Source: Ignavibacteriales bacterium (GTDB taxonomy: Bacteria; Bacteroidota; Ignavibacteria; T3Sed10-11). From it: 5,811 bases of DNA. The position numbers and the translations under genes were made by a program. The notes under the pieces were generated by a model. It had not been told where the DNA came from. It did not search any database and was given only the letters and a program-made list of their open reading frames with translations. Location of the stretch: the NCBI GenBank assembly GCA_003560935.1, contig PWJF01000510.1, positions 1-5,811 on the forward strand, in the 5' to 3' direction. Below are positions 2 through 5,811 of this stretch, piece by piece (position 1 is the first letter of the stretch; each line of letters opens with the position of its first letter).

Positions 2-322
2 GTTGATGAGAAATTCGAAGAATTAAAGACGATGATGTGCGAGGAGTTTGAAAATCTAACTGATGAAGTCAAAAAGCACAATGGAGTTAAACCTATGATT
101 GAGAATCTGGAAAGTAGATTTGAATATCATGTGACTGATTGGAACGCCTTCCAATCCGGACTGCAAACTCAGCAAGCGATTGATGAAGATAAGGAACAAG
201 AGCACCAAAGAGGTATTGATGAGGGTGACAGGCTGTTTAATAAGCGAATTAAACTTGCGGCACTTTACCTCACTGGGGCTGGAATAATTATAGGTGCGTT
301 GGTTCGGATATTATTCTTTTAG
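2..322 (+). CDS. XhlA-like lysis-associated membrane protein (5' end outside window)
   Basis: The frame is open from the first complete codon (position 2) to TAG at 322. The tandem ATGs at 32 and 35 have no convincing ribosome binding site and the acidic helical sequence continues upstream of them, so the real start probably lies before the window. The N-terminal part is charged and helical with a coiled-coil look (VDEKFEELK, then EVKKHNGVKPMIENLE). The last ~24 residues are a hydrophobic segment (LAALYLTGAGIIIGALV), giving an N-in, single C-terminal membrane helix. This layout matches XhlA/haemolysin-type proteins that sit next to holin and endolysin genes in Firmicutes phages and act at the membrane during lysis. 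Its stop codon overlaps the Shine-Dalgarno of the endolysin, implying translational coupling. The family call rests on architecture and position, not on a diagnostic motif. Confidence 0.6.
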   Translation, partial: VDEKFEELKTMMCEEFENLTDEVKKHNGVKPMIENLESRFEYHVTDWNAFQSGLQTQQAIDEDKEQEHQRGIDEGDRLFNKRIKLAALYLTGAGIIIGALVRILFF

Positions 323-333
323 GAGGTGAAGAA

Positions 334-1623
334 TTGAATATTGTGGATTATTACTTATCTATGGGCTGGAGGGTCACCAGTGATTTTGGTTGGAGAAATG
401 ATCCCTTTACTGGAAAAAGAATCCATCACAACGGGATTGATTTTGGAATCCCTGAGCAGAATCGCAGAAATGGCCCCTACAATATACCCGTTTTAACTCC
501 TTACGCTGGTCCCGTTCACGCAGTGGGGGATTTTGGCGACAGAGGGCTCACTGTCGTTCAGCACGTCGCTGGAAGAAATGCGCTGGCTGTTTTTCAACAC
601 CTACACAGGATAGACGTTAGGAAGGGACAGACTTTAAAAAAAGGCAGTTCTGTTGGCTTGGTAGGCAGTACTGGAAGATCGACGCTGATCCACTTACACG
701 CAGAACTTCGAAAGTATAGTGCTGCTGCTTTAGGCAGCGGGCTGTGGGGTAACCCAAGGGATTTTCCAATTTCGGCTGGGGGAGGTAATGGAATTATGGA
801 AACTGTCGTGCTTGATCCGGGTCACGGCGGGGATGGAAGATTGACCAAATTTGGAGCCACGGGGAATGGACTCGTGGAAAAGAATTTGAACTTGACTGTG
901 TGCCGTTTCACTAAAGCTAAGTTGGAGAAGAATTTTGAGTGCAAAGTCGTAATGACTCGAAATTCTGACGTGGATGTTAGTTTTGCTGATAGAGCAGCTG
1001 TTGCGAGAAATGCCAACGCGGCACTCTTATTCTCTGCGCATTTTAACGGCTTCCACGACCCAAATGCGCACGGGTTTGAAACGTTTATTTACAACGGGAC
1101 TTTGAGATCAGAAACCATAAATAATCAGCACGCTATACACGACGCTATACACGCTTATTTGTCCACTTTAGGCATCGCCAATAGAGGCAAAAAGCGCGCC
1201 AATTTCGCCATTCTCAGACTCCCTCCGACTTCGTGCGTGCTGGCTGAGTACTGCTTTATCACTAACCCGAGGGAAGCAGCGTTGGTGAAGAGACCAGGAA
1301 CGCTCGAAAGCATTGGAGAAGCAACGGCAGAGGGAATCGCCAAGGCGCTTAGTCTTCCGCGCAAAGAAGTCGCGCCCCCTCCGCCAGTCCAGCCTCCTTC
1401 CGGCCCGCTCCCTCAGCTAATCAGGCGCGTTGGAATAGAGACGGACGGAGTCATGACTAATGAACCTGCTTTTCTGACTGAAATCCAAGACACGATCGTG
1501 ACGGTGGGCAGGATAACTTATATTGTTGGAGTATGTAATCAAAGACTTAGAGACGCCAAGCTGCCTCCAATTCGAGTCACTGGTCACGGGGACCATATCA
1601 AAATTGATACGGAGGGGAGATAG
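334..1623 (+). CDS. Bifunctional endolysin: M23 endopeptidase + N-acetylmuramoyl-L-alanine amidase (Amidase_3)
   Basis: A 429-aa peptidoglycan hydrolase. It starts at TTG, 5 nt after AGGAGGTG (321-328). Residues ~10-130 are an M23 (LytM-type) zinc metallopeptidase: H32-x3-D36 (HHNGIDFG), H89 in FQHLH, the KGQ...GSTG stretch and H120-L-H122. Such domains cut peptide cross-bridges. After a Gly-rich linker (149-153), residues 155-340 are Amidase_3: DPGHGG with zinc ligand H164, E182 in LVEKNLN, H236 in SAHFN and catalytic E305 in LAEYCFITN. This domain cuts the MurNAc-L-Ala bond. A Pro-rich linker (~345-360) leads to a ~65-aa C-terminal module ending GDHIKIDTEGR, possibly a wall-binding or stalk-like domain. 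There is no signal peptide, so release should depend on a holin. Two catalytic domains on one chain are typical of Gram-positive phages. The next gene starts directly after its stop. Confidence 0.93.
   Translation: MNIVDYYLSMGWRVTSDFGWRNDPFTGKRIHHNGIDFGIPEQNRRNGPYNIPVLTPYAGPVHAVGDFGDRGLTVVQHVAGRNALAVFQHLHRIDVRKGQTLKKGSSVGLVGSTGRSTLIHLHAELRKYSAAALGSGLWGNPRDFPISAGGGNGIMETVVLDPGHGGDGRLTKFGATGNGLVEKNLNLTVCRFTKAKLEKNFECKVVMTRNSDVDVSFADRAAVARNANAALLFSAHFNGFHDPNAHGFETFIYNGTLRSETINNQHAIHDAIHAYLSTLGIANRGKKRANFAILRLPPTSCVLAEYCFITNPREAALVKRPGTLESIGEATAEGIAKALSLPRKEVAPPPPVQPPSGPLPQLIRRVGIETDGVMTNEPAFLTEIQDTIVTVGRITYIVGVCNQRLRDAKLPPIRVTGHGDHIKIDTEGR
778..798 (+). promoter_or_regulatory. Candidate internal ribosome binding site and in-frame ATG inside the endolysin
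   Basis: GGGGGAGGT (778-786) is followed after 9 nt by an in-frame ATG (796-798, codon M155) exactly where Amidase_3 begins (METVVLDPGHGG). Initiation here would give a 275-aa amidase-only protein. Internal starts making short isoforms are documented for several endolysins. Caveat: the Shine-Dalgarno coincides with GGG-GGA-GGT codons of a Gly linker and could be accidental. Confidence 0.45.
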
Positions 1624-2025
1624 ATGGAAAAAAGGCTGTATTCTTTTTTAGACGATGAGTGCGAAAAAGATTCTGAGAGAGTGGAGAAGTTGTTGGAAAA
1701 AGAAGCAAGTGGCACTTTCAGCAAAAAGCTAATAGTGGTGATGCTTATTTTGTTGGTCATATTCGTCGCTGTGGTTTTGCGAAATTTCATTTTGACGGGG
1801 ATGGAGCCCGGCACGCTTATCGTGGCTGTGTTTAGTTTATTCACTGGGCAGTTTGGATTAATGGCTTGGCTCATGAAAAATAAAAGAGATTCTGTTTACC
1901 GTGAAATCACCACTTATCGCGAAGGCCATAATATGCCCATGCCGTTCACGCTCGAAGAATCCACACCCCCAGTAGAAGATGAAGTGGATGCTCATACACG
2001 CGAACATCATTTTGCTGGAGAATAG
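1624..2025 (+). CDS. Two-transmembrane-segment protein of the lysis cassette (holin/antiholin candidate)
   Basis: A 133-aa protein. Its ATG directly follows the endolysin TAG (TAGATG) and has a good site, GGAGGGGAG (1611-1619). An acidic/basic helical N-terminus (residues 1-35, EKDSERVEKLLEKE) precedes two hydrophobic segments: ~36-57 (KLIVVMLILLVIFVAVVL) and ~63-84 (GTLIVAVFSLFTGQFGLMAW). Positive residues KNKR follow at once. A ~45-residue hydrophilic tail rich in Glu, Asp and His ends the protein. By the positive-inside rule (KK before segment 1, KNKR after segment 2) both ends should face the cytoplasm, with a very short external loop. That topology and the place between endolysin and protease fit a holin, antiholin or other lysis regulator. 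No family motif is recognised with certainty, so function is inferred from context and topology. Confidence 0.6.
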   Translation: MEKRLYSFLDDECEKDSERVEKLLEKEASGTFSKKLIVVMLILLVIFVAVVLRNFILTGMEPGTLIVAVFSLFTGQFGLMAWLMKNKRDSVYREITTYREGHNMPMPFTLEESTPPVEDEVDAHTREHHFAGE

Positions 2026-2036
2026 GAGGGGTATAA

Positions 2037-3056
2037 ATGAAAGTGTCTAAAGAGAAATTCAAGCAAGACTTAAAAAAGCGTTTTGCCCAAAATGAGCTTA
2101 TTTCCACGTGGGAAAACCAGCCTCAAATTGATAAAGATGGCGACGAAATTATCAATGTAGGACTGGCCAAAGGGCATCTCACTCTTCAGCAAGCGCAAGA
2201 CTTGCCCACTGAGATAGATGGAGTGAAGATCGTCTATCACTATGAGGGAGAAGTTCGGCTGATGAAGACCACTGATTATTATGACCCCTTGATTGGCGGG
2301 ATCTCTTTTGGATCCATTGATATTACTGCCGGGACGCTTGGAGGCATCGTGTGGGACAAAGAGAACAACGATCCCTTTCTTATCACTAATGAGCACGTGG
2401 TCAGCGACACTAAGAATAACGATCCATCACACCCTCCTATTGGCCACCCCATCGTTCAGCCTGGTCCGCTGGATGGCGGTATGAGCATAGCAGGCAAACT
2501 CGTAAAAGTTGGGGGTATGAAAGAATCAGCGATGGATAACAAAGCGTGTAATATAGACGCTGCGCTGGTCAGGCCGATCAGGGGATTCGCTTCTGAAGAA
2601 TTTTGGGGGATTGGCGACGTAAAGAACTATGCCCACGCGTCAGTAAAGCCTGGCGATCCTATCATTAAATCAGGCAGGACCACGGGCGTGACTACTAATA
2701 CTGTTTTGGCTGTAAATGTTTCTGCTAATATTGGCGGAATCTCTTGGAACTCTCCAGTGGCTATGGAAGGGCTTATACAATCAAGAACTTCGTTTGTCGA
2801 AGGGGGTGATTCAGGAAGTCGGGTTTGGAGGAAGGATACTATGGAGCCAATAGGACTTGTTTTTGCTGGCTCTTGGCTCACTTCTTTCATTATTCCAGCG
2901 CAGACTATTTGCGATGTTTTAGGCGTTTATTTTGGAAGTAAGTACGCCAATAATCCCGACAATCCTGATGAAAATATAGAGAAGAAGGGGTTGTTCAGTA
3001 GGATATGGGGTTTTATTAAGCGAATCATCAAAAGAATCTTTGGAGGAGTGATATGA
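2037..3056 (+). CDS. Trypsin-fold (S1/Nal1-like) serine protease with cationic amphipathic C-terminal tail
   Basis: A 339-aa protein; ATG lies 5 nt after TAGGAGGGG (2023-2031), which overlaps the previous stop. A ~75-residue N-terminal region (NVGLAKG...LPTEIDGVKI...EGEVRLM) resembles the N-terminal part of bacterial Nal1-like proteases, which precedes the catalytic fold. The catalytic domain runs ~80-297. ITAGTLGGIV and LITNEHVV carry H120, NIDAALVRP carries D174, KSGRTTGVTT is the family loop, and EGGDSGS carries the nucleophile S259, followed by GLVFAGS. All three triad residues are present, so it should be active; the substrate is unknown. There is no signal peptide or N-terminal membrane segment. 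After a hydrophilic linker (NNPDNPDENIEKK) the last 22 residues (318-339) form a cationic amphipathic helix, unusual for this family. It lies between two membrane-protein genes of the lysis operon, so a role in lysis or late envelope processing is plausible but inferred. Confidence 0.88.
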   Translation: MKVSKEKFKQDLKKRFAQNELISTWENQPQIDKDGDEIINVGLAKGHLTLQQAQDLPTEIDGVKIVYHYEGEVRLMKTTDYYDPLIGGISFGSIDITAGTLGGIVWDKENNDPFLITNEHVVSDTKNNDPSHPPIGHPIVQPGPLDGGMSIAGKLVKVGGMKESAMDNKACNIDAALVRPIRGFASEEFWGIGDVKNYAHASVKPGDPIIKSGRTTGVTTNTVLAVNVSANIGGISWNSPVAMEGLIQSRTSFVEGGDSGSRVWRKDTMEPIGLVFAGSWLTSFIIPAQTICDVLGVYFGSKYANNPDNPDENIEKKGLFSRIWGFIKRIIKRIFGGVI

Positions 3057-3274
3057 TGAAAGAGCCTATTTGGAAGCAGGAGGAATTTTGGGTTGCCGTG
3101 GTAACTGGTATTTTGGTGATTTTAAACCAGGGACTGGGCCTCGGTATTGACCCTGAGCCTGTGCTGTATATCGTGGCGCTGGTATTCGCGTGGATCGTGG
3201 GCAGTAGCGTAAAGAAAGCTGCTTTTGCTATACGTGAAGCGATCGTCACTGCCGCGAAATTGAAAGACAAATAA
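3053..3274 (+). CDS. Small two-segment holin-like protein
   Basis: A 73-aa protein (72 if the second ATG at 3056 is used). The gene overlaps the protease stop (ATATGATG), with GGAGGAGTG at 3042-3050. Spacing from GGAGG is 6 nt to the first ATG and 9 nt to the second, so either can serve. Segment 1 is ~12-31 (FWVAVVTGILVILNQGLGLG), followed by a short D-P-E-P turn. Segment 2 is ~36-53 (PVLYIVALVFAWIVGSS). A basic helical tail ends in KLKDK. The pattern of a charged N-terminus with Trp/Phe-rich entry, a first segment containing N-Q-G-L-G and a second ending I-V-G is typical of small holin-type proteins in Firmicutes phages. A holin forms membrane lesions that let the cytoplasmic endolysin reach the wall. 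It is the last gene of the plus-strand operon and is followed by a terminator. Confidence 0.72.
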   Translation: MMKEPIWKQEEFWVAVVTGILVILNQGLGLGIDPEPVLYIVALVFAWIVGSSVKKAAFAIREAIVTAAKLKDK

Positions 3275-3326
3275 AGTCTTTCCGCTTGTTGTTATTGTTA
3301 TCCGGTGAGCCCCCTTCCTAACTGGT

Positions 3327-3368
3327 TGCGCCTTTCAGAAGCTACACGCGCTGAGAGGCGCATTTTTT
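3327..3368 (+). terminator. Intrinsic terminator of the lysis operon
   Basis: Arms TGCGCCTTTCAG (3327-3338) and CTGAGAGGCGCA (3351-3362) form a 12-bp stem with one G-U pair around a 12-nt loop, followed at once by T6 (3363-3368). It lies 52 nt after the stop of the holin-like gene. Confidence 0.9.
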
Positions 3369-3380
3369 GTGTCGAGAGTA

Positions 3381-3424
3381 AAGCAAAGGTAGCGGGCGAA
3401 TGTAAATATACACGCCCACTACCT
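3381..3424 (-). terminator. Probable terminator for the minus-strand regulator gene
   Basis: Arms AGGTAGCGGGCG (3387-3398) and CGCCCACTACCT (3413-3424) pair over 12 bp. Read on the minus strand the single irregular pair is a G-U, whereas on the plus strand it is a C-A mismatch. TGTA/TACA inside can extend the stem. On the minus strand it is followed by TTTGCTTT, a weak U-rich tract. It lies ~50 nt after the stop of the RsfA-like gene, opposite to the plus-strand terminator. Confidence 0.65.
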
Positions 3425-3440
3425 AAAATTGCTTAGCGCG

Positions 3441-3462
3441 CAAATCTGTTGGCTTAGATTTG
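3441..3462. other. Small perfect hairpin in the convergent intergenic region
   Basis: CAAATCT (3441-3447) and AGATTTG (3456-3462) form a perfect 7-bp stem with an 8-nt loop. An outer AGCGC (3435-3439) / GCGCT (3472-3476) match could enclose it. It has no adjacent T run, so it is not a terminator alone; it might protect the 3' end of the minus transcript. The rest of 3275-3475, apart from the two terminators, shows nothing recognisable. Confidence 0.3.
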
Positions 3463-3475
3463 AAATAAAGGGCGC

Positions 3476-3886
3476 TCACTTCTGGGTTTTGTTCAATCTT
3501 TCTACTACCCCCTGGGGATCCACGTTGTATTCGAGTCGCTTTTTGATATTCAGCGTGTCTTGCGCCCATTGCTCCAACGTGCGAATCTCTTTTGCGAGGT
3601 CATTTAATTCTTGAATCACTTCAGCGATGCGACACGTTATGGTGATGCTTGTTAATTCCATAGCAGCGTCTCCTAAAGCAGCGCGCGCGTTCGATTCTTT
3701 TTCCTCCCTTTTTCTTGCCACTTCGTGATAGAATTTGGACCTGGTCCCCGATTCGGGACGCCCTGTTTTCTCCATTATACGTCTGATGAGCGTCTCACCA
3801 GTCTCGGTATTGTTGGGGTCAAGAAAGCGCGTGACGCATTCTTCCAATATTACCAGCTCAGACGTTGTCCACTTTTTCGCTCCCAT
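3476..3886 (-). CDS. RsfA/Myb-like DNA-binding protein with C-terminal coiled coil
   Basis: A 136-aa soluble protein. Its ATG at 3886 has AGGAGG (3895-3900) 8 nt upstream. Residues 4-58 look like a Myb/SANT-type helical DNA-binding unit: KKWTTSELVILEECVTRF as the Trp-initiated first helix, an insert with N-N-T-E-T-G, a second helix (ETLIRRIMEKTGRPESG) and a putative recognition helix (TRSKFYHEVARKR). Spacing and the W-T-x-x-E/D start recall RsfA-type prespore regulators of Bacillus and their phage relatives. Residues ~70-120 are heptad-like (IAEVIQELNDLAKEIRTLEQW), suggesting oligomerisation, also typical of RsfA-like proteins. It has its own promoter and lies beyond the terminator of the other minus-strand genes, so it is an independent unit. 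Likely a transcription regulator; target unknown. A small-terminase-like role was considered but nothing specific supports it. Confidence 0.62.
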   Translation of the reverse strand: MGAKKWTTSELVILEECVTRFLDPNNTETGETLIRRIMEKTGRPESGTRSKFYHEVARKREEKESNARAALGDAAMELTSITITCRIAEVIQELNDLAKEIRTLEQWAQDTLNIKKRLEYNVDPQGVVERLNKTQK

Positions 3887-3915
3887 TCATTTTGCCTCCT
3901 TTTTCTTTTTGTTCT

Positions 3916-3943
3916 ATTATACAGGTTTGCTCAATTTCGTTAA
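3916..3943 (-). promoter_or_regulatory. SigA-type promoter for the RsfA-like gene
   Basis: On the minus strand a perfect TATAAT (3916-3921) lies 16 nt downstream of TTAACG (3938-3943, 4 of 6 matches to TTGACA). Expected transcription start is near 3909, giving a leader of roughly 23 nt up to the ATG at 3886 that includes the AGGAGG. It sits just downstream of the terminator ending the neighbouring operon, which supports independent expression. Confidence 0.72.
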
Positions 3944-3963
3944 TGCTTGCCAGGAAAATAGGC

Positions 3964-4006
3964 AAAAAAAAATGCCCCACCCAGCAACATCGTCGCTGGT
4001 CAGGGC
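3964..4006 (-). terminator. Strong intrinsic terminator closing the minus-strand operon
   Basis: On the minus strand, GCCCTGACCAGCGAC (4006-3992) pairs with GTTGCTGGGTGGGGC (3988-3974) over 15 positions with three G-U pairs and one mismatch around a 3-nt loop. It is followed by one A and then T9 (3972-3964). It starts 7 nt after the stop of the RHH gene. Confidence 0.88.
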
Positions 4007-4012
4007 GCGTTA

Positions 4013-4180
4013 TTACTTTTTCCTGTTATACACCGTTCCTTTAGGCGGGTTCTTTTTCTTGTATTCACTGATTGCTTCTCGCACTATAGCAGCCCGGGAT
4101 CGTCCATCCTCTTTAGACTTCTGGGCGAGGTAATTGTACTGCGCGGTGTCGATGTAAAGCTGAAAAAGTACTTTAGGCAT
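4013..4180 (-). CDS. 55-aa ribbon-helix-helix (CopG/Arc-like) DNA-binding protein
   Basis: A short gene starting at ATG 4180-4178, with AGGAGG (4188-4193) 7 nt upstream, and ending TAA at 4013. The protein begins MPKVLFQLYIDTAQYNYLAQ and continues with K-S-K-E-D-G-R-S and a second helix R-A-A-I-V-R-E-A-I-S-E-Y-K-K-K. This is the ribbon-helix-helix layout: a short alternating N-terminal strand (residues 3-10, normally inserted into the major groove by a dimer), helix 1 (~11-24), a turn ending G-R-S (26-28) and helix 2 (~29-43) with the R-E-A-I pattern. The basic tail ends YNRKK. Such proteins are usually small repressors, often acting on their own operon or as antitoxins; no toxin gene is adjacent. 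It is the last gene of the vWA/DUF6744-like operon, 19 nt after the previous stop and just before the strong terminator. Confidence 0.82.
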   Translation of the reverse strand: MPKVLFQLYIDTAQYNYLAQKSKEDGRSRAAIVREAISEYKKKNPPKGTVYNRKK

Positions 4181-4199
4181 AGTTGTTCCTCCTCTCTGT

Positions 4200-5156
4200 T
4201 TAACTGTCTTCAGAAGCCAATTCCATGAGCTTGATGGCTTGCTGCCTTGCTATGTCTAAGTTGGCGCGCGCAGTAGTGGCTTGCGTCTCCAGCATTTCTT
4301 CGTATTCGCTCACTAAGTCTTTCAGTGATTTAATACGATCGGCAAACCCTTTCGCTGCTCTCGTGCTAATTCCCTGTGCGGGGTTCTCCATAACGTTCTT
4401 CATTTCTTGGATTAATGAAGTGGAGCCAGTAAGCACTTGCTCCTCCAAGTTTTCTCCAATCATTTCTCTGTGCTCAGTGGCATCTATAACGGGCACGCTA
4501 TACATTTTCACGCGCCCCTGGTACTGGTTCAGACGTTTACAAAGCCCCTTCACAGCTTCCACTGTCTCTGCGTATTTTTGCGGGATGAATTCTACCCCGC
4601 CATTGGGCCTTACAGAGACGGGATCGCACTGCCTTAAAATGATTTGAATCATGTAGCGGACGTGCGTGCCGTCGTAATGATTACACGCATCTTCTTGGAG
4701 TTGCGGCAGCGATTCTTTCACCACTTTCTCTGATGGAGTCAAGGGGTCAACCAGAGGGGTAATGCCCACATCGCCCGCTTCCCCGATCTCCAACTGCAGA
4801 ACTGGCATGTAATCCAGTCGCTTATTCTCCCCATCCACCACCTCGCGGACGAGTTGGCGAATGACCTCTCCTTCGGCGTATTTTACATCACGCACGAGCA
4901 AGTTGGTGTAGGTGCCTTTGCCATAGGGTTCGCGCTTGAATTCGAACCCTTTGGTGACGCGACGAAAAGCATCACGGGGATTGATTTTCCTCGGCATAAA
5001 CTTCTCCAAGCCATATTCAGCCAGTGCGGCTTCTAAGTCTTCTGTGGGAATTTTTAGAACGTCGCTGACTGTTGACCAAAGCAAATAACCGAGGTATTCC
5101 ACTTCAACGGCATTGCCGCCCTCGATCGCTCTTAGATTTTCAACACTTCGGGTCAT
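4200..5156 (-). CDS. DUF6744-like phage protein
   Basis: A 318-aa soluble protein when started at ATG 5156. An upstream in-frame ATG at 5165 would add three residues (MRT) but abuts GGAGG (5166-5170) with no spacer, whereas the ATG at 5156 has 9 nt; the shorter form is preferred. Visible parts: an N-terminal helical region (LGYLLWSTVSDVL...) leading to DAFRRVTKG; a middle region with lysine/acidic strands (YAEGEVIRQLVREVVDGENK); a segment SVRPNGGVEFIPQKY; and an acidic helical, coiled-coil-like C-terminus (SLKDLVSEYEEMLETQATTARANLDIARQQ). The A-F-R-R-x-T-K and R-P-x-G-G-V-x-F-I-P signatures recall the uncharacterised DUF6744 family of Firmicutes phages; this assignment is from memory and not checked. 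No catalytic motif is apparent. It lies in an operon with a vWA protein, suggesting a shared complex. Function unknown. Confidence 0.65.
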   Translation of the reverse strand: MTRSVENLRAIEGGNAVEVEYLGYLLWSTVSDVLKIPTEDLEAALAEYGLEKFMPRKINPRDAFRRVTKGFEFKREPYGKGTYTNLLVRDVKYAEGEVIRQLVREVVDGENKRLDYMPVLQLEIGEAGDVGITPLVDPLTPSEKVVKESLPQLQEDACNHYDGTHVRYMIQIILRQCDPVSVRPNGGVEFIPQKYAETVEAVKGLCKRLNQYQGRVKMYSVPVIDATEHREMIGENLEEQVLTGSTSLIQEMKNVMENPAQGISTRAAKGFADRIKSLKDLVSEYEEMLETQATTARANLDIARQQAIKLMELASEDS

Positions 5157-5174
5157 GGTTCTCATCCTCCTTAG
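5154..5174 (-). promoter_or_regulatory. Ribosome binding site that decides the start of the DUF6744-like gene
   Basis: On the minus strand CTAAGGAGG (5174-5166) is directly followed by ATG (5165-5163), too close for initiation. A second in-frame ATG (5156-5154) lies 9 nt from GGAGG and is the better start. Confidence 0.75.
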
Positions 5175-5402: not shown

Positions 5403-5811
5403 TTATATTTCCTCGAATAGATCGCCCGCCACGTCGTCACCGGATTCCTCCAGGTTTAGCAGGCGCCAAACTTTATTATTCCATGCTTTTAAATCCCCCA
5501 GTGAATCCTCTCCAATCAGGATAGTATAGCACGAAATTTTGTTGCGTTCTTTCCATTCTATGAGACTGGTTACGTGGTCAGGATCGAGGGCGCAATATCC
5601 ATCTGTGATCATTATCATGTCTGCTTTTTCGTATGCTTTGTTTTGTGATTTTCCACCAGCTATTAATTGCGTGGCCCTCTTTAGTGCGGGCGTATAATCT
5701 GTCCCGCCCCCAACTCCTATTCGCGCCATTTTTAAGAAGTCCTCCACGTTTTTTTCGCCAGGAACGAAGTCGAACTCAGCTTGAACTTCTGTATCAAAAA
5801 ATATGGCGCGG
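5403..5811 (-). CDS. von Willebrand factor A (vWA) domain protein, C-terminal part (5' end outside window)
   Basis: The frame is open from the right edge of the window to TAA at 5405-5403, about 135 residues. A GTG at 5747 could be read as a start but has no Shine-Dalgarno. The residues before it (RAIFFDTEVQAEFDFVPGEK) are part of the vWA fold, so the gene continues beyond the window. Visible elements are the central strand I-F-F-D-T-E-V, the metal-binding loop GGGTDYTPAL (Thr codon 5702-5700), the strand and motif ADMIMITDG (Asp codon 5603-5601), and the last strand CYTILIGED. The first D-x-S-x-S part of the MIDAS metal site would lie upstream and cannot be seen. vWA proteins bind partners through a divalent metal and often work with MoxR-type AAA+ ATPases. 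Such an ATPase may be encoded just beyond the right edge; that is inference. Likely the first visible gene of the minus-strand operon. Confidence 0.88.
   Translation of the reverse strand, partial: RAIFFDTEVQAEFDFVPGEKNVEDFLKMARIGVGGGTDYTPALKRATQLIAGGKSQNKAYEKADMIMITDGYCALDPDHVTSLIEWKERNKISCYTILIGEDSLGDLKAWNNKVWRLLNLEESGDDVAGDLFEEI

What the first reader, a model, noticed from the sequence alone, without database searches (positions are those of the whole stretch)
2988..3053. Protease ends in a near-ideal cationic amphipathic helix
Residues 318-339 of the serine protease, plotted by hand at 100 degrees per residue, put every polar or small residue (S321, R322, G325, K328, R329, K332, R333, G336) in one ~140-degree arc. 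Every hydrophobic residue (L319, F320, I323, W324, F326, I327, I330, I331, I334, F335) falls in the rest. With K316/K317 the tail carries about +7 and follows a flexible N/D/P-rich linker. This resembles membrane-active peptides and is not part of the protease fold. It could anchor the protease to the membrane, permeabilise the membrane itself, or be released by cleavage after the K-K pair. A membrane-active tail on a protease in a lysis cassette is, to my knowledge, not a described lysis factor.
Basis: partly seen in the sequence, partly recalled or inferred. Interest (0 to 1): 0.8.

Follow-up and report, generated by a model that had tools for sequence, protein, structure and literature searches.

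The report
Phage protease with swappable membrane anchors
A trypsin-like protease encoded beside likely cell-lysis genes, probably of a bacterial virus, ends in a positively charged two-faced helix that is predicted to hold it on the cell membrane, and close relatives carry at that place a similar helix, a predicted membrane-spanning segment, or a relative of the neighbouring holin-like membrane protein fused on.

Summary
In detail: residues 318-335 form a sharply two-faced cationic segment, predicted helical and beyond the catalytic domain, whose structural matches mostly stop at residue 296-302. One search listed 25 close family members, the window protein included; 24 have a readable end, and a later search gave one more. 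Of these 25 ends, 19 are short cationic amphipathic segments, 2 are single predicted spans, and 4 are fusions to a two-span protein homologous to the holin-like gene directly downstream in the window. The types interleave on the protease tree; the window protein's sister (75% identical) has a span. Amphipathicity is kept (mean moment 0.815, shuffled 0.491, 0 of 1000) while the tail drifts (29% identity against 63% in the catalytic part). Of 157 listed distant relatives, 132 have no long extension. So the tail most likely is an interchangeable anchor placing the protease at the membrane beside the holin. Permeabilisation and release after K-K are poorly supported. A role in lysis, and the substrate, are inferred. 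New variant of a known kind (NAL1-related S1 protease).

The parts
2037..3056 (+). trypsin-like serine protease, 339 aa, no predicted span
   Evidence: ORF; phrog_20754 protease E 1.9e-23; PF25819 E 1.5e-4 and Trypsin_2 E 0.0019, both below cut-off; no span
2037..2261 (+). N-terminal small domain, residues 1-75; no hydrophobic leader by eye
   Evidence: AlphaFold2 model; alignment; sequence
2289..2936 (+). chymotrypsin-fold catalytic domain, residues 85-300; predicted triad H120 (2394-2396), D174 (2556-2558), S259 (2811-2813)
2937..2987 (+). N/D/P-rich linker, residues 301-317
   Evidence: model pLDDT 74 (301-310) and 56 (311-320); sequence
2988..3041 (+). cationic amphipathic helix, residues 318-335; predicted membrane anchor
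   Evidence: moment and angles; helix 312-335 in the model with pLDDT 80 (321-330) and 67 (331-339); family test
3042..3053 (+). codons for GGVI, containing the Shine-Dalgarno-like GGAGG (3042-3046) of the next gene
   Evidence: sequence
3053..3274 (+). two-span holin-like protein (start 3053 or 3056) overlapping the protease stop; homologous to the C-terminal fusions of four relatives
   Evidence: phrog_9987 holin E 1.2e-5; BLAST to fused C-termini; spans
334..1623 (+). endolysin: M23 peptidase plus Amidase_3
   Evidence: Pfam E 7.7e-15 and 1.1e-37
1624..2025 (+). 133-aa protein with two predicted spans, unknown function; possible substrate or partner
   Evidence: spans; phrog_38777 (unknown function) E 4.4e-7
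2..322 (+). protein with a predicted C-terminal span, 5' end outside the contig, same direction
   Evidence: ORF; span 88-106
3348..3361 (+). terminator-like hairpin after the rightward gene group
   Evidence: consensus scan (5 such sites found in 2900-4300, 2.1 expected, sd 1.6)

Best explanation
The tail is most likely a membrane anchor that holds a probable phage trypsin-like protease on the inner face of the cytoplasmic membrane, next to the holin-like protein whose gene overlaps its stop codon. Shown: the helix lies beyond the catalytic domain in the model; a two-faced cationic segment is kept in 19 of 25 readable ends of the clade (window included); in the other 6 its place is taken by a hydrophobic span or by a homologue of the holin-like protein; these types interchange on the tree. 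Inferred: that the helix binds membrane; that the protease faces the cytoplasm (no hydrophobic leader; in the four fusions the hairpin loop has no lysine or arginine while the flank after it has 2 or 3); that the pair is made together late in infection. Least certain is the job, and I commit to this: the anchored protease clips a membrane protein where the holin acts, most likely a lysis protein (the holin-like protein, the 133-aa two-span protein or the upstream one-span protein), so helping to set or complete lysis.
For: Membrane module on 25 of 25 readable ends, classed by moment, hydropathy and eye: 19 amphipathic, 2 span, 4 holin-like fusion. One, P0124, came from a search made after the pattern was seen. 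Swaps on the tree: P0001 against span-bearing sister P0002 (99/94), P0009 against fusion P0013 (100/99), P0012 against fusion P0014 (89/78, weaker); 5 changes needed within the clade. The fused parts match the window's holin-like protein, E 2.7e-15, 4.3e-6, 2.3e-6, 1.8e-8 against four sequences; P0013 also matches phrog_9987 holin, E 6.2e-4 (the other three fusions did not). Tail moment 0.815 against 0.491, 0 of 1000, with tail identity 29% against 63% in the catalytic part. Model: helix 312-335 after a low-confidence linker; 46 of 50 listed structural matches end at residue 302 or before. Fused relative P0025 models as protease, loose linker and two long helices. Precedent: an unrelated amphipathic helix could replace that of Noc, which its authors take as a sign of a membrane-targeting role (PMC4331003, passages).
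Against: No binding or lysis data. In Noc a synthetic span anchored the protein but did not restore function (PMC4331003, passages), so swaps do not prove equivalence. The two single-span tails have net acidic N-flanks and at most one arginine after the span, and the N-flanks of fusions P0013 and P0023 are net acidic too, which by the positive-inside rule (recalled) does not favour a cytoplasmic protease. Four of 50 structural matches, all NAL1, reach model residues 318-323, and I had no PAE or coordinates, so docking of the helix on the protease is not excluded; its own confidence is moderate. Only 10 of 31 inner tree branches are strongly supported. Neighbourhoods of relatives could not be read: linkage to lysis genes is seen in the window, in four fusions, and probably on one 9711-base contig (P0003 and P0122). 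The fusions are gene predictions on metagenome contigs; error cannot be excluded, least of all for single-member P0013.
Confidence: 0.65

Rival explanations
1. The helix is a membrane-disrupting peptide that itself weakens the membrane during lysis, as an accessory holin or as in endolysins with AMP-like C-terminal helices.
For: High moment, aromatic-rich, net +2 to +7 in the best 14 residues of 19 tails; endolysins with predicted AMP-like amphipathic C-terminal helices are published (PMC10053066, listing and abstract start); the binned genome has outer-membrane Omp85 proteins.
Against: Six relatives carry modules without a cationic amphipathic face; five of the 19 helices are only +2; the contig may not belong to that genome.
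Confidence: 0.15
2. The protease and the holin-like protein are one unit in which the protease cleaves itself or its partner to release or arm the holin (a special case of the best explanation).
For: Start-stop overlap with the ribosome site inside the tail's codons; four fusions to a holin-like protein, each with GG then E or D and a nearby Met or Val at the joint, as reading through a ribosome site would give (from protein letters only).
Against: No cleavage site tested or seen; the fusions may be only anchors.
Confidence: 0.25
3. The protease is membrane-tethered but serves something other than lysis, such as superinfection exclusion or attack on host envelope proteins.
For: Five distant family members also have likely C-terminal spans (P0052, P0066, P0125, P0164, P0173), so tethering occurs elsewhere in the family; their contexts were not read.
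Against: Position between endolysin and holin-like genes, and fusion to the latter in relatives; no match in the defence library at 0.01.
Confidence: 0.2
4. The tail is a by-product of the next gene's ribosome site and of chance, without function.
For: GGVI is coded by the ribosome site; GG also lies near the end of three other tails (P0004, P0017, P0020).
Against: The helix 318-335 lies before that site; moment kept despite drift, 0 of 1000 shuffles.
Confidence: 0.04

Closest known systems
NAL1-like S1 proteases (rice NARROW LEAF 1; bacterial PF25819/PF25608 proteins)
   Different: 132 of 157 listed distant relatives have under 15 residues past the fold (capped lists); no cationic tail class seen among them
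Streptogrisin / alpha-lytic type proteases
   Different: Secreted enzymes with cleaved pro-regions (recalled); here no leader and an added C-terminal membrane module
Amphipathic-helix membrane anchors (MinD, FtsA, SepF, Noc)
   Same: Amphipathic helix as membrane anchor of a cytosolic protein (PMC11790237 and PMC4331003, passages)
   Different: Division and nucleoid proteins; here a protease with natural span and holin-fusion alternatives
Endolysins with AMP-like C-terminal helices
   Different: Peptidoglycan hydrolases, not S1 proteases; a swap with spans or holins is not known to me
Capsid-protease fusion with holin-like N-terminus, Gordonia phage EpicDab
   Same: Holin-like domain fused to a protease-containing protein; [quoted passage not shown]
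   Different: Protease and major-capsid fusion with the holin-like part at the N-terminus; not this family

Membership tests
NAL1-like S1 serine protease | chymotrypsin fold | tested here: met
NAL1-like S1 serine protease | His-Asp-Ser triad conserved | tested here: met
   H120, D174, S259 invariant in 42 aligned sequences, (broken fragment P0024 not among them)
NAL1-like S1 serine protease | family profile above curated cut-off | tested here: inconclusive
   window protein below cut-off: PF25819 21.5 of 26.1 bits, Trypsin_2 19.4 of 27.6; PF25819 is precomputed for 11 of the 25 clade members; no NCBIfam match
NAL1-like S1 serine protease | proteolytic activity | not testable with these tools
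   needs an enzyme assay
amphipathic-helix membrane anchor | segregated hydrophobic and basic faces, terminal position | tested here: met
amphipathic-helix membrane anchor | replaceable by another membrane module | tested here: inconclusive
   natural swaps in relatives; no experiment
amphipathic-helix membrane anchor | binds membrane | not testable with these tools
   needs localisation or liposome assay
phage lysis cassette | endolysin and holin-like gene together | tested here: met
phage lysis cassette | on a phage genome with structural genes | tested here: inconclusive
   contig of 5811 bases, none recognised on it; neighbours' nearest named matches are in phages

The most novel reading that the evidence does not exclude
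A hitherto undescribed lysis component: a cytoplasmic trypsin-like protease that phages keep at the membrane by whatever means is at hand (amphipathic helix, membrane span, or fusion to the holin) and that forms one functional unit with the holin, cutting the holin or a partner membrane protein to set the moment of lysis.
Probability: 0.27. Interest if true: 0.82.

Novelty: new variant of a known kind. Interest (0 to 1): 0.6.

Why it matters
Phage lysis is usually told with holins, endolysins and spanins. A protease that repeatedly changes its membrane anchor, and in some relatives is joined to the holin-like protein itself, would add a proteolytic step at the membrane, and its relatives offer a natural set of anchor swaps with which to test that.

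Tried and rejected
Permeabilising peptide as the main reading: set aside because spans and fusions take the helix's place. K-K release: pair directly before the helix in 7 of 19 tails by my reading, 12 of 19 by a looser script window. Tail as part of the fold: 46 of 50 listed structural matches end at model residue 302 or before, 4 (all NAL1) at 318-323. Viral contigs: scans with the protease, its alignment and the holin-like protein found no relative, and a motif scan gave four contigs, none matching by tblastn; each scan rests on a few exact words. Named phages: 3 records match the protease, at 27.0-27.6% (a 484-kb uncultured phage and two copies of an archaeal Alphaspiravirus). Genome contigs: L002, a short 83% match at the end of a contig filed as Bacteroidales, looks like a chimeric joint, and L003 is a short 52% match. 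No match at E 1e-35 in 390 other genomes of the class and 394 of the phylum draw, which overlap; at E 0.001, 13 of 60 relatives have distant family members. Defence library: nothing at 0.01 for five window proteins. Host: the binned genome has eight Omp85 matches and no Spo0A match; the window's GC (0.467) fits it, but its tetranucleotide profile fits poorly (median r 0.16; 14 of 15 readable contig pieces scored higher), so the host stays open. The internal insert of the 484-kb phage's relative scored only 0.53. P0024, whose end is frame-broken, was dropped before counting tails and from the tree. The holin-like search could not see fusions, as it only takes proteins up to 1.75 times the query's length. 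The script stopped on an error after its main output.

Full report
Observation. The 339-aa ORF at 2037-3056 ends in KKGLFSRIWGFIKRIIKRIFGGVI. In this sequence alone the moment is about a 1% event among shuffles (670 to 1,041 of 100,000 for three cuts; 6,061 of 100,000 if K316/K317 are added). It is the strongest 14-residue moment in the protein (0.89).

Relatives. A search of 5.8 billion proteins listed 25 close members including the window protein (relatives 47-75% identical to it by BLASTP), then a drop from 291 to 127 bits to a large family (5501 proteins at E 0.001, best 120 listed). A profile search added one fragment of the same clade, P0124. Leaving out P0024, whose end is frame-broken, 25 C-termini can be read: 19 short cationic amphipathic, 2 single spans (P0002, P0007), 4 fusions (P0013, P0014, P0023, P0025), classed by moment, hydropathy and eye. 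The fused parts match the window's downstream holin-like protein (E 2.7e-15, 4.3e-6, 2.3e-6 and 1.8e-8 against four sequences). Among the 157 distant proteins listed by the two searches, 25 have 15 or more residues past the fold; 15 of these, by my reading, hold a second copy of the N-terminal domain, and 5 a likely span (whose printed totals of 158 and 26 include P0124).

Evolution of the tail. On a tree of the protease part alone (24 clade members, 10 outgroup) the three tail types need 5 changes within the clade. The window protein's sister carries a span (support 99/94); P0009 (helix) is sister to P0013 (fusion) (100/99); P0012 groups with P0014 (89/78). Only 10 of 31 inner branches are strongly supported, but those alone force 4 gains or losses of the helix label, 3 of the fusion label and 2 of the span label. 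Tail identity averages 29% while the catalytic part averages 63% over 153 pairs, yet the mean best moment of 19 tails is 0.815 against 0.491 for shuffled tails (0 of 1000) and 0.49 for 95 distant relatives. Against this: 4 of 18 tails are not individually significant, and the rows are related.

The link to the holin. In the window the stop codon TGA (3054-3056) overlaps the ATG at 3053-3055 (a second ATG follows at 3056), and GGAGG (3042-3046) lies in the codons of G336 and G337. All four fusions show GG followed by E or D and a nearby Met or Val at the joint, which is what reading through such a site would give; this rests on protein letters only. The holin-like protein matches phrog_9987 holin (E 1.2e-5) and, weakly, a Bacillus phage protein placed after an amidase gene (E 0.03). 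Its search returned three proteins including itself; P0122 and protease P0003 are each listed on one 9711-base contig of the same source, likely the same contig.

Mechanism. A helix whose place can be taken by a span or by a membrane protein is best read as an anchor. For Noc an unrelated amphipathic helix restored function, but a synthetic span did not (PMC4331003, passages), so exchange is evidence for location, not proof of equal function. In the four fused hairpins the loop has no lysine or arginine and the flank after the second span has 2 or 3 with net charge +1 or +2; a hairpin has both ends on one side, so the protease would face the cytoplasm. The N-flanks of P0013 and P0023 and of the two single-span tails are net acidic, which weakens this. 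The substrate is unknown; I favour a lysis protein because of the gene order and the fusions.

Is it a phage? Neighbours are an M23 plus Amidase_3 endolysin, a holin-like gene, and opposite-strand genes, one of which (DUF6744) is 31.5% identical to a Moorella phage protein. The protease itself has only distant matches (27%) in 3 named phage records. The contig is too short to show structural genes. It was binned with a genome having Omp85 proteins and similar GC, but its tetranucleotide profile fits poorly and five same-genus genomes lack the protease. Phage origin is likely; the host is open.

Literature. No membrane-tethered protease of a lysis cassette appeared in the titles and abstract starts returned (open-licence PMC full text; I read none of those papers whole). 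[quoted passage not shown]

Verdict.

Noticed in passing
window 2-322: Upstream protein with a charged body and a C-terminal span resembles XhlA-type lysis proteins in layout (recalled; no convincing library match).
   Followed up: no
window 334-1623: Endolysin joins an M23 peptidase and an Amidase_3 domain; none of 174 matching phage records covers 80% of it.
   Followed up: partly
window 1624-2025: 133-aa two-span protein between endolysin and protease, matching only phage families of unknown function (a Pfam match at E 0.0096 is below cut-off).
   Followed up: partly
window 4200-5165: DUF6744 protein on the opposite strand, related to one in Moorella phage MTATph1.
   Followed up: partly
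window 5403-5810: VWA-like protein running off the contig (E 6.5e-5, below cut-off).
   Followed up: no
L024:6001-7008: Distant relative in a 484-kb uncultured phage has an internal insert GLFSKLCQFFKSLFGG that resembles the tail, but with a moment of only 0.53.
   Followed up: partly
L002:1-298: Protease fragment, 83% identical, running into unrelated sequence beside a histidine-kinase-like gene on a contig filed as Bacteroidales; looks like an assembly joint.
   Followed up: partly
P0052, P0066, P0125, P0164, P0173: Distant family members with their own likely C-terminal spans, so membrane tethering may have arisen outside the clade too.
   Followed up: no
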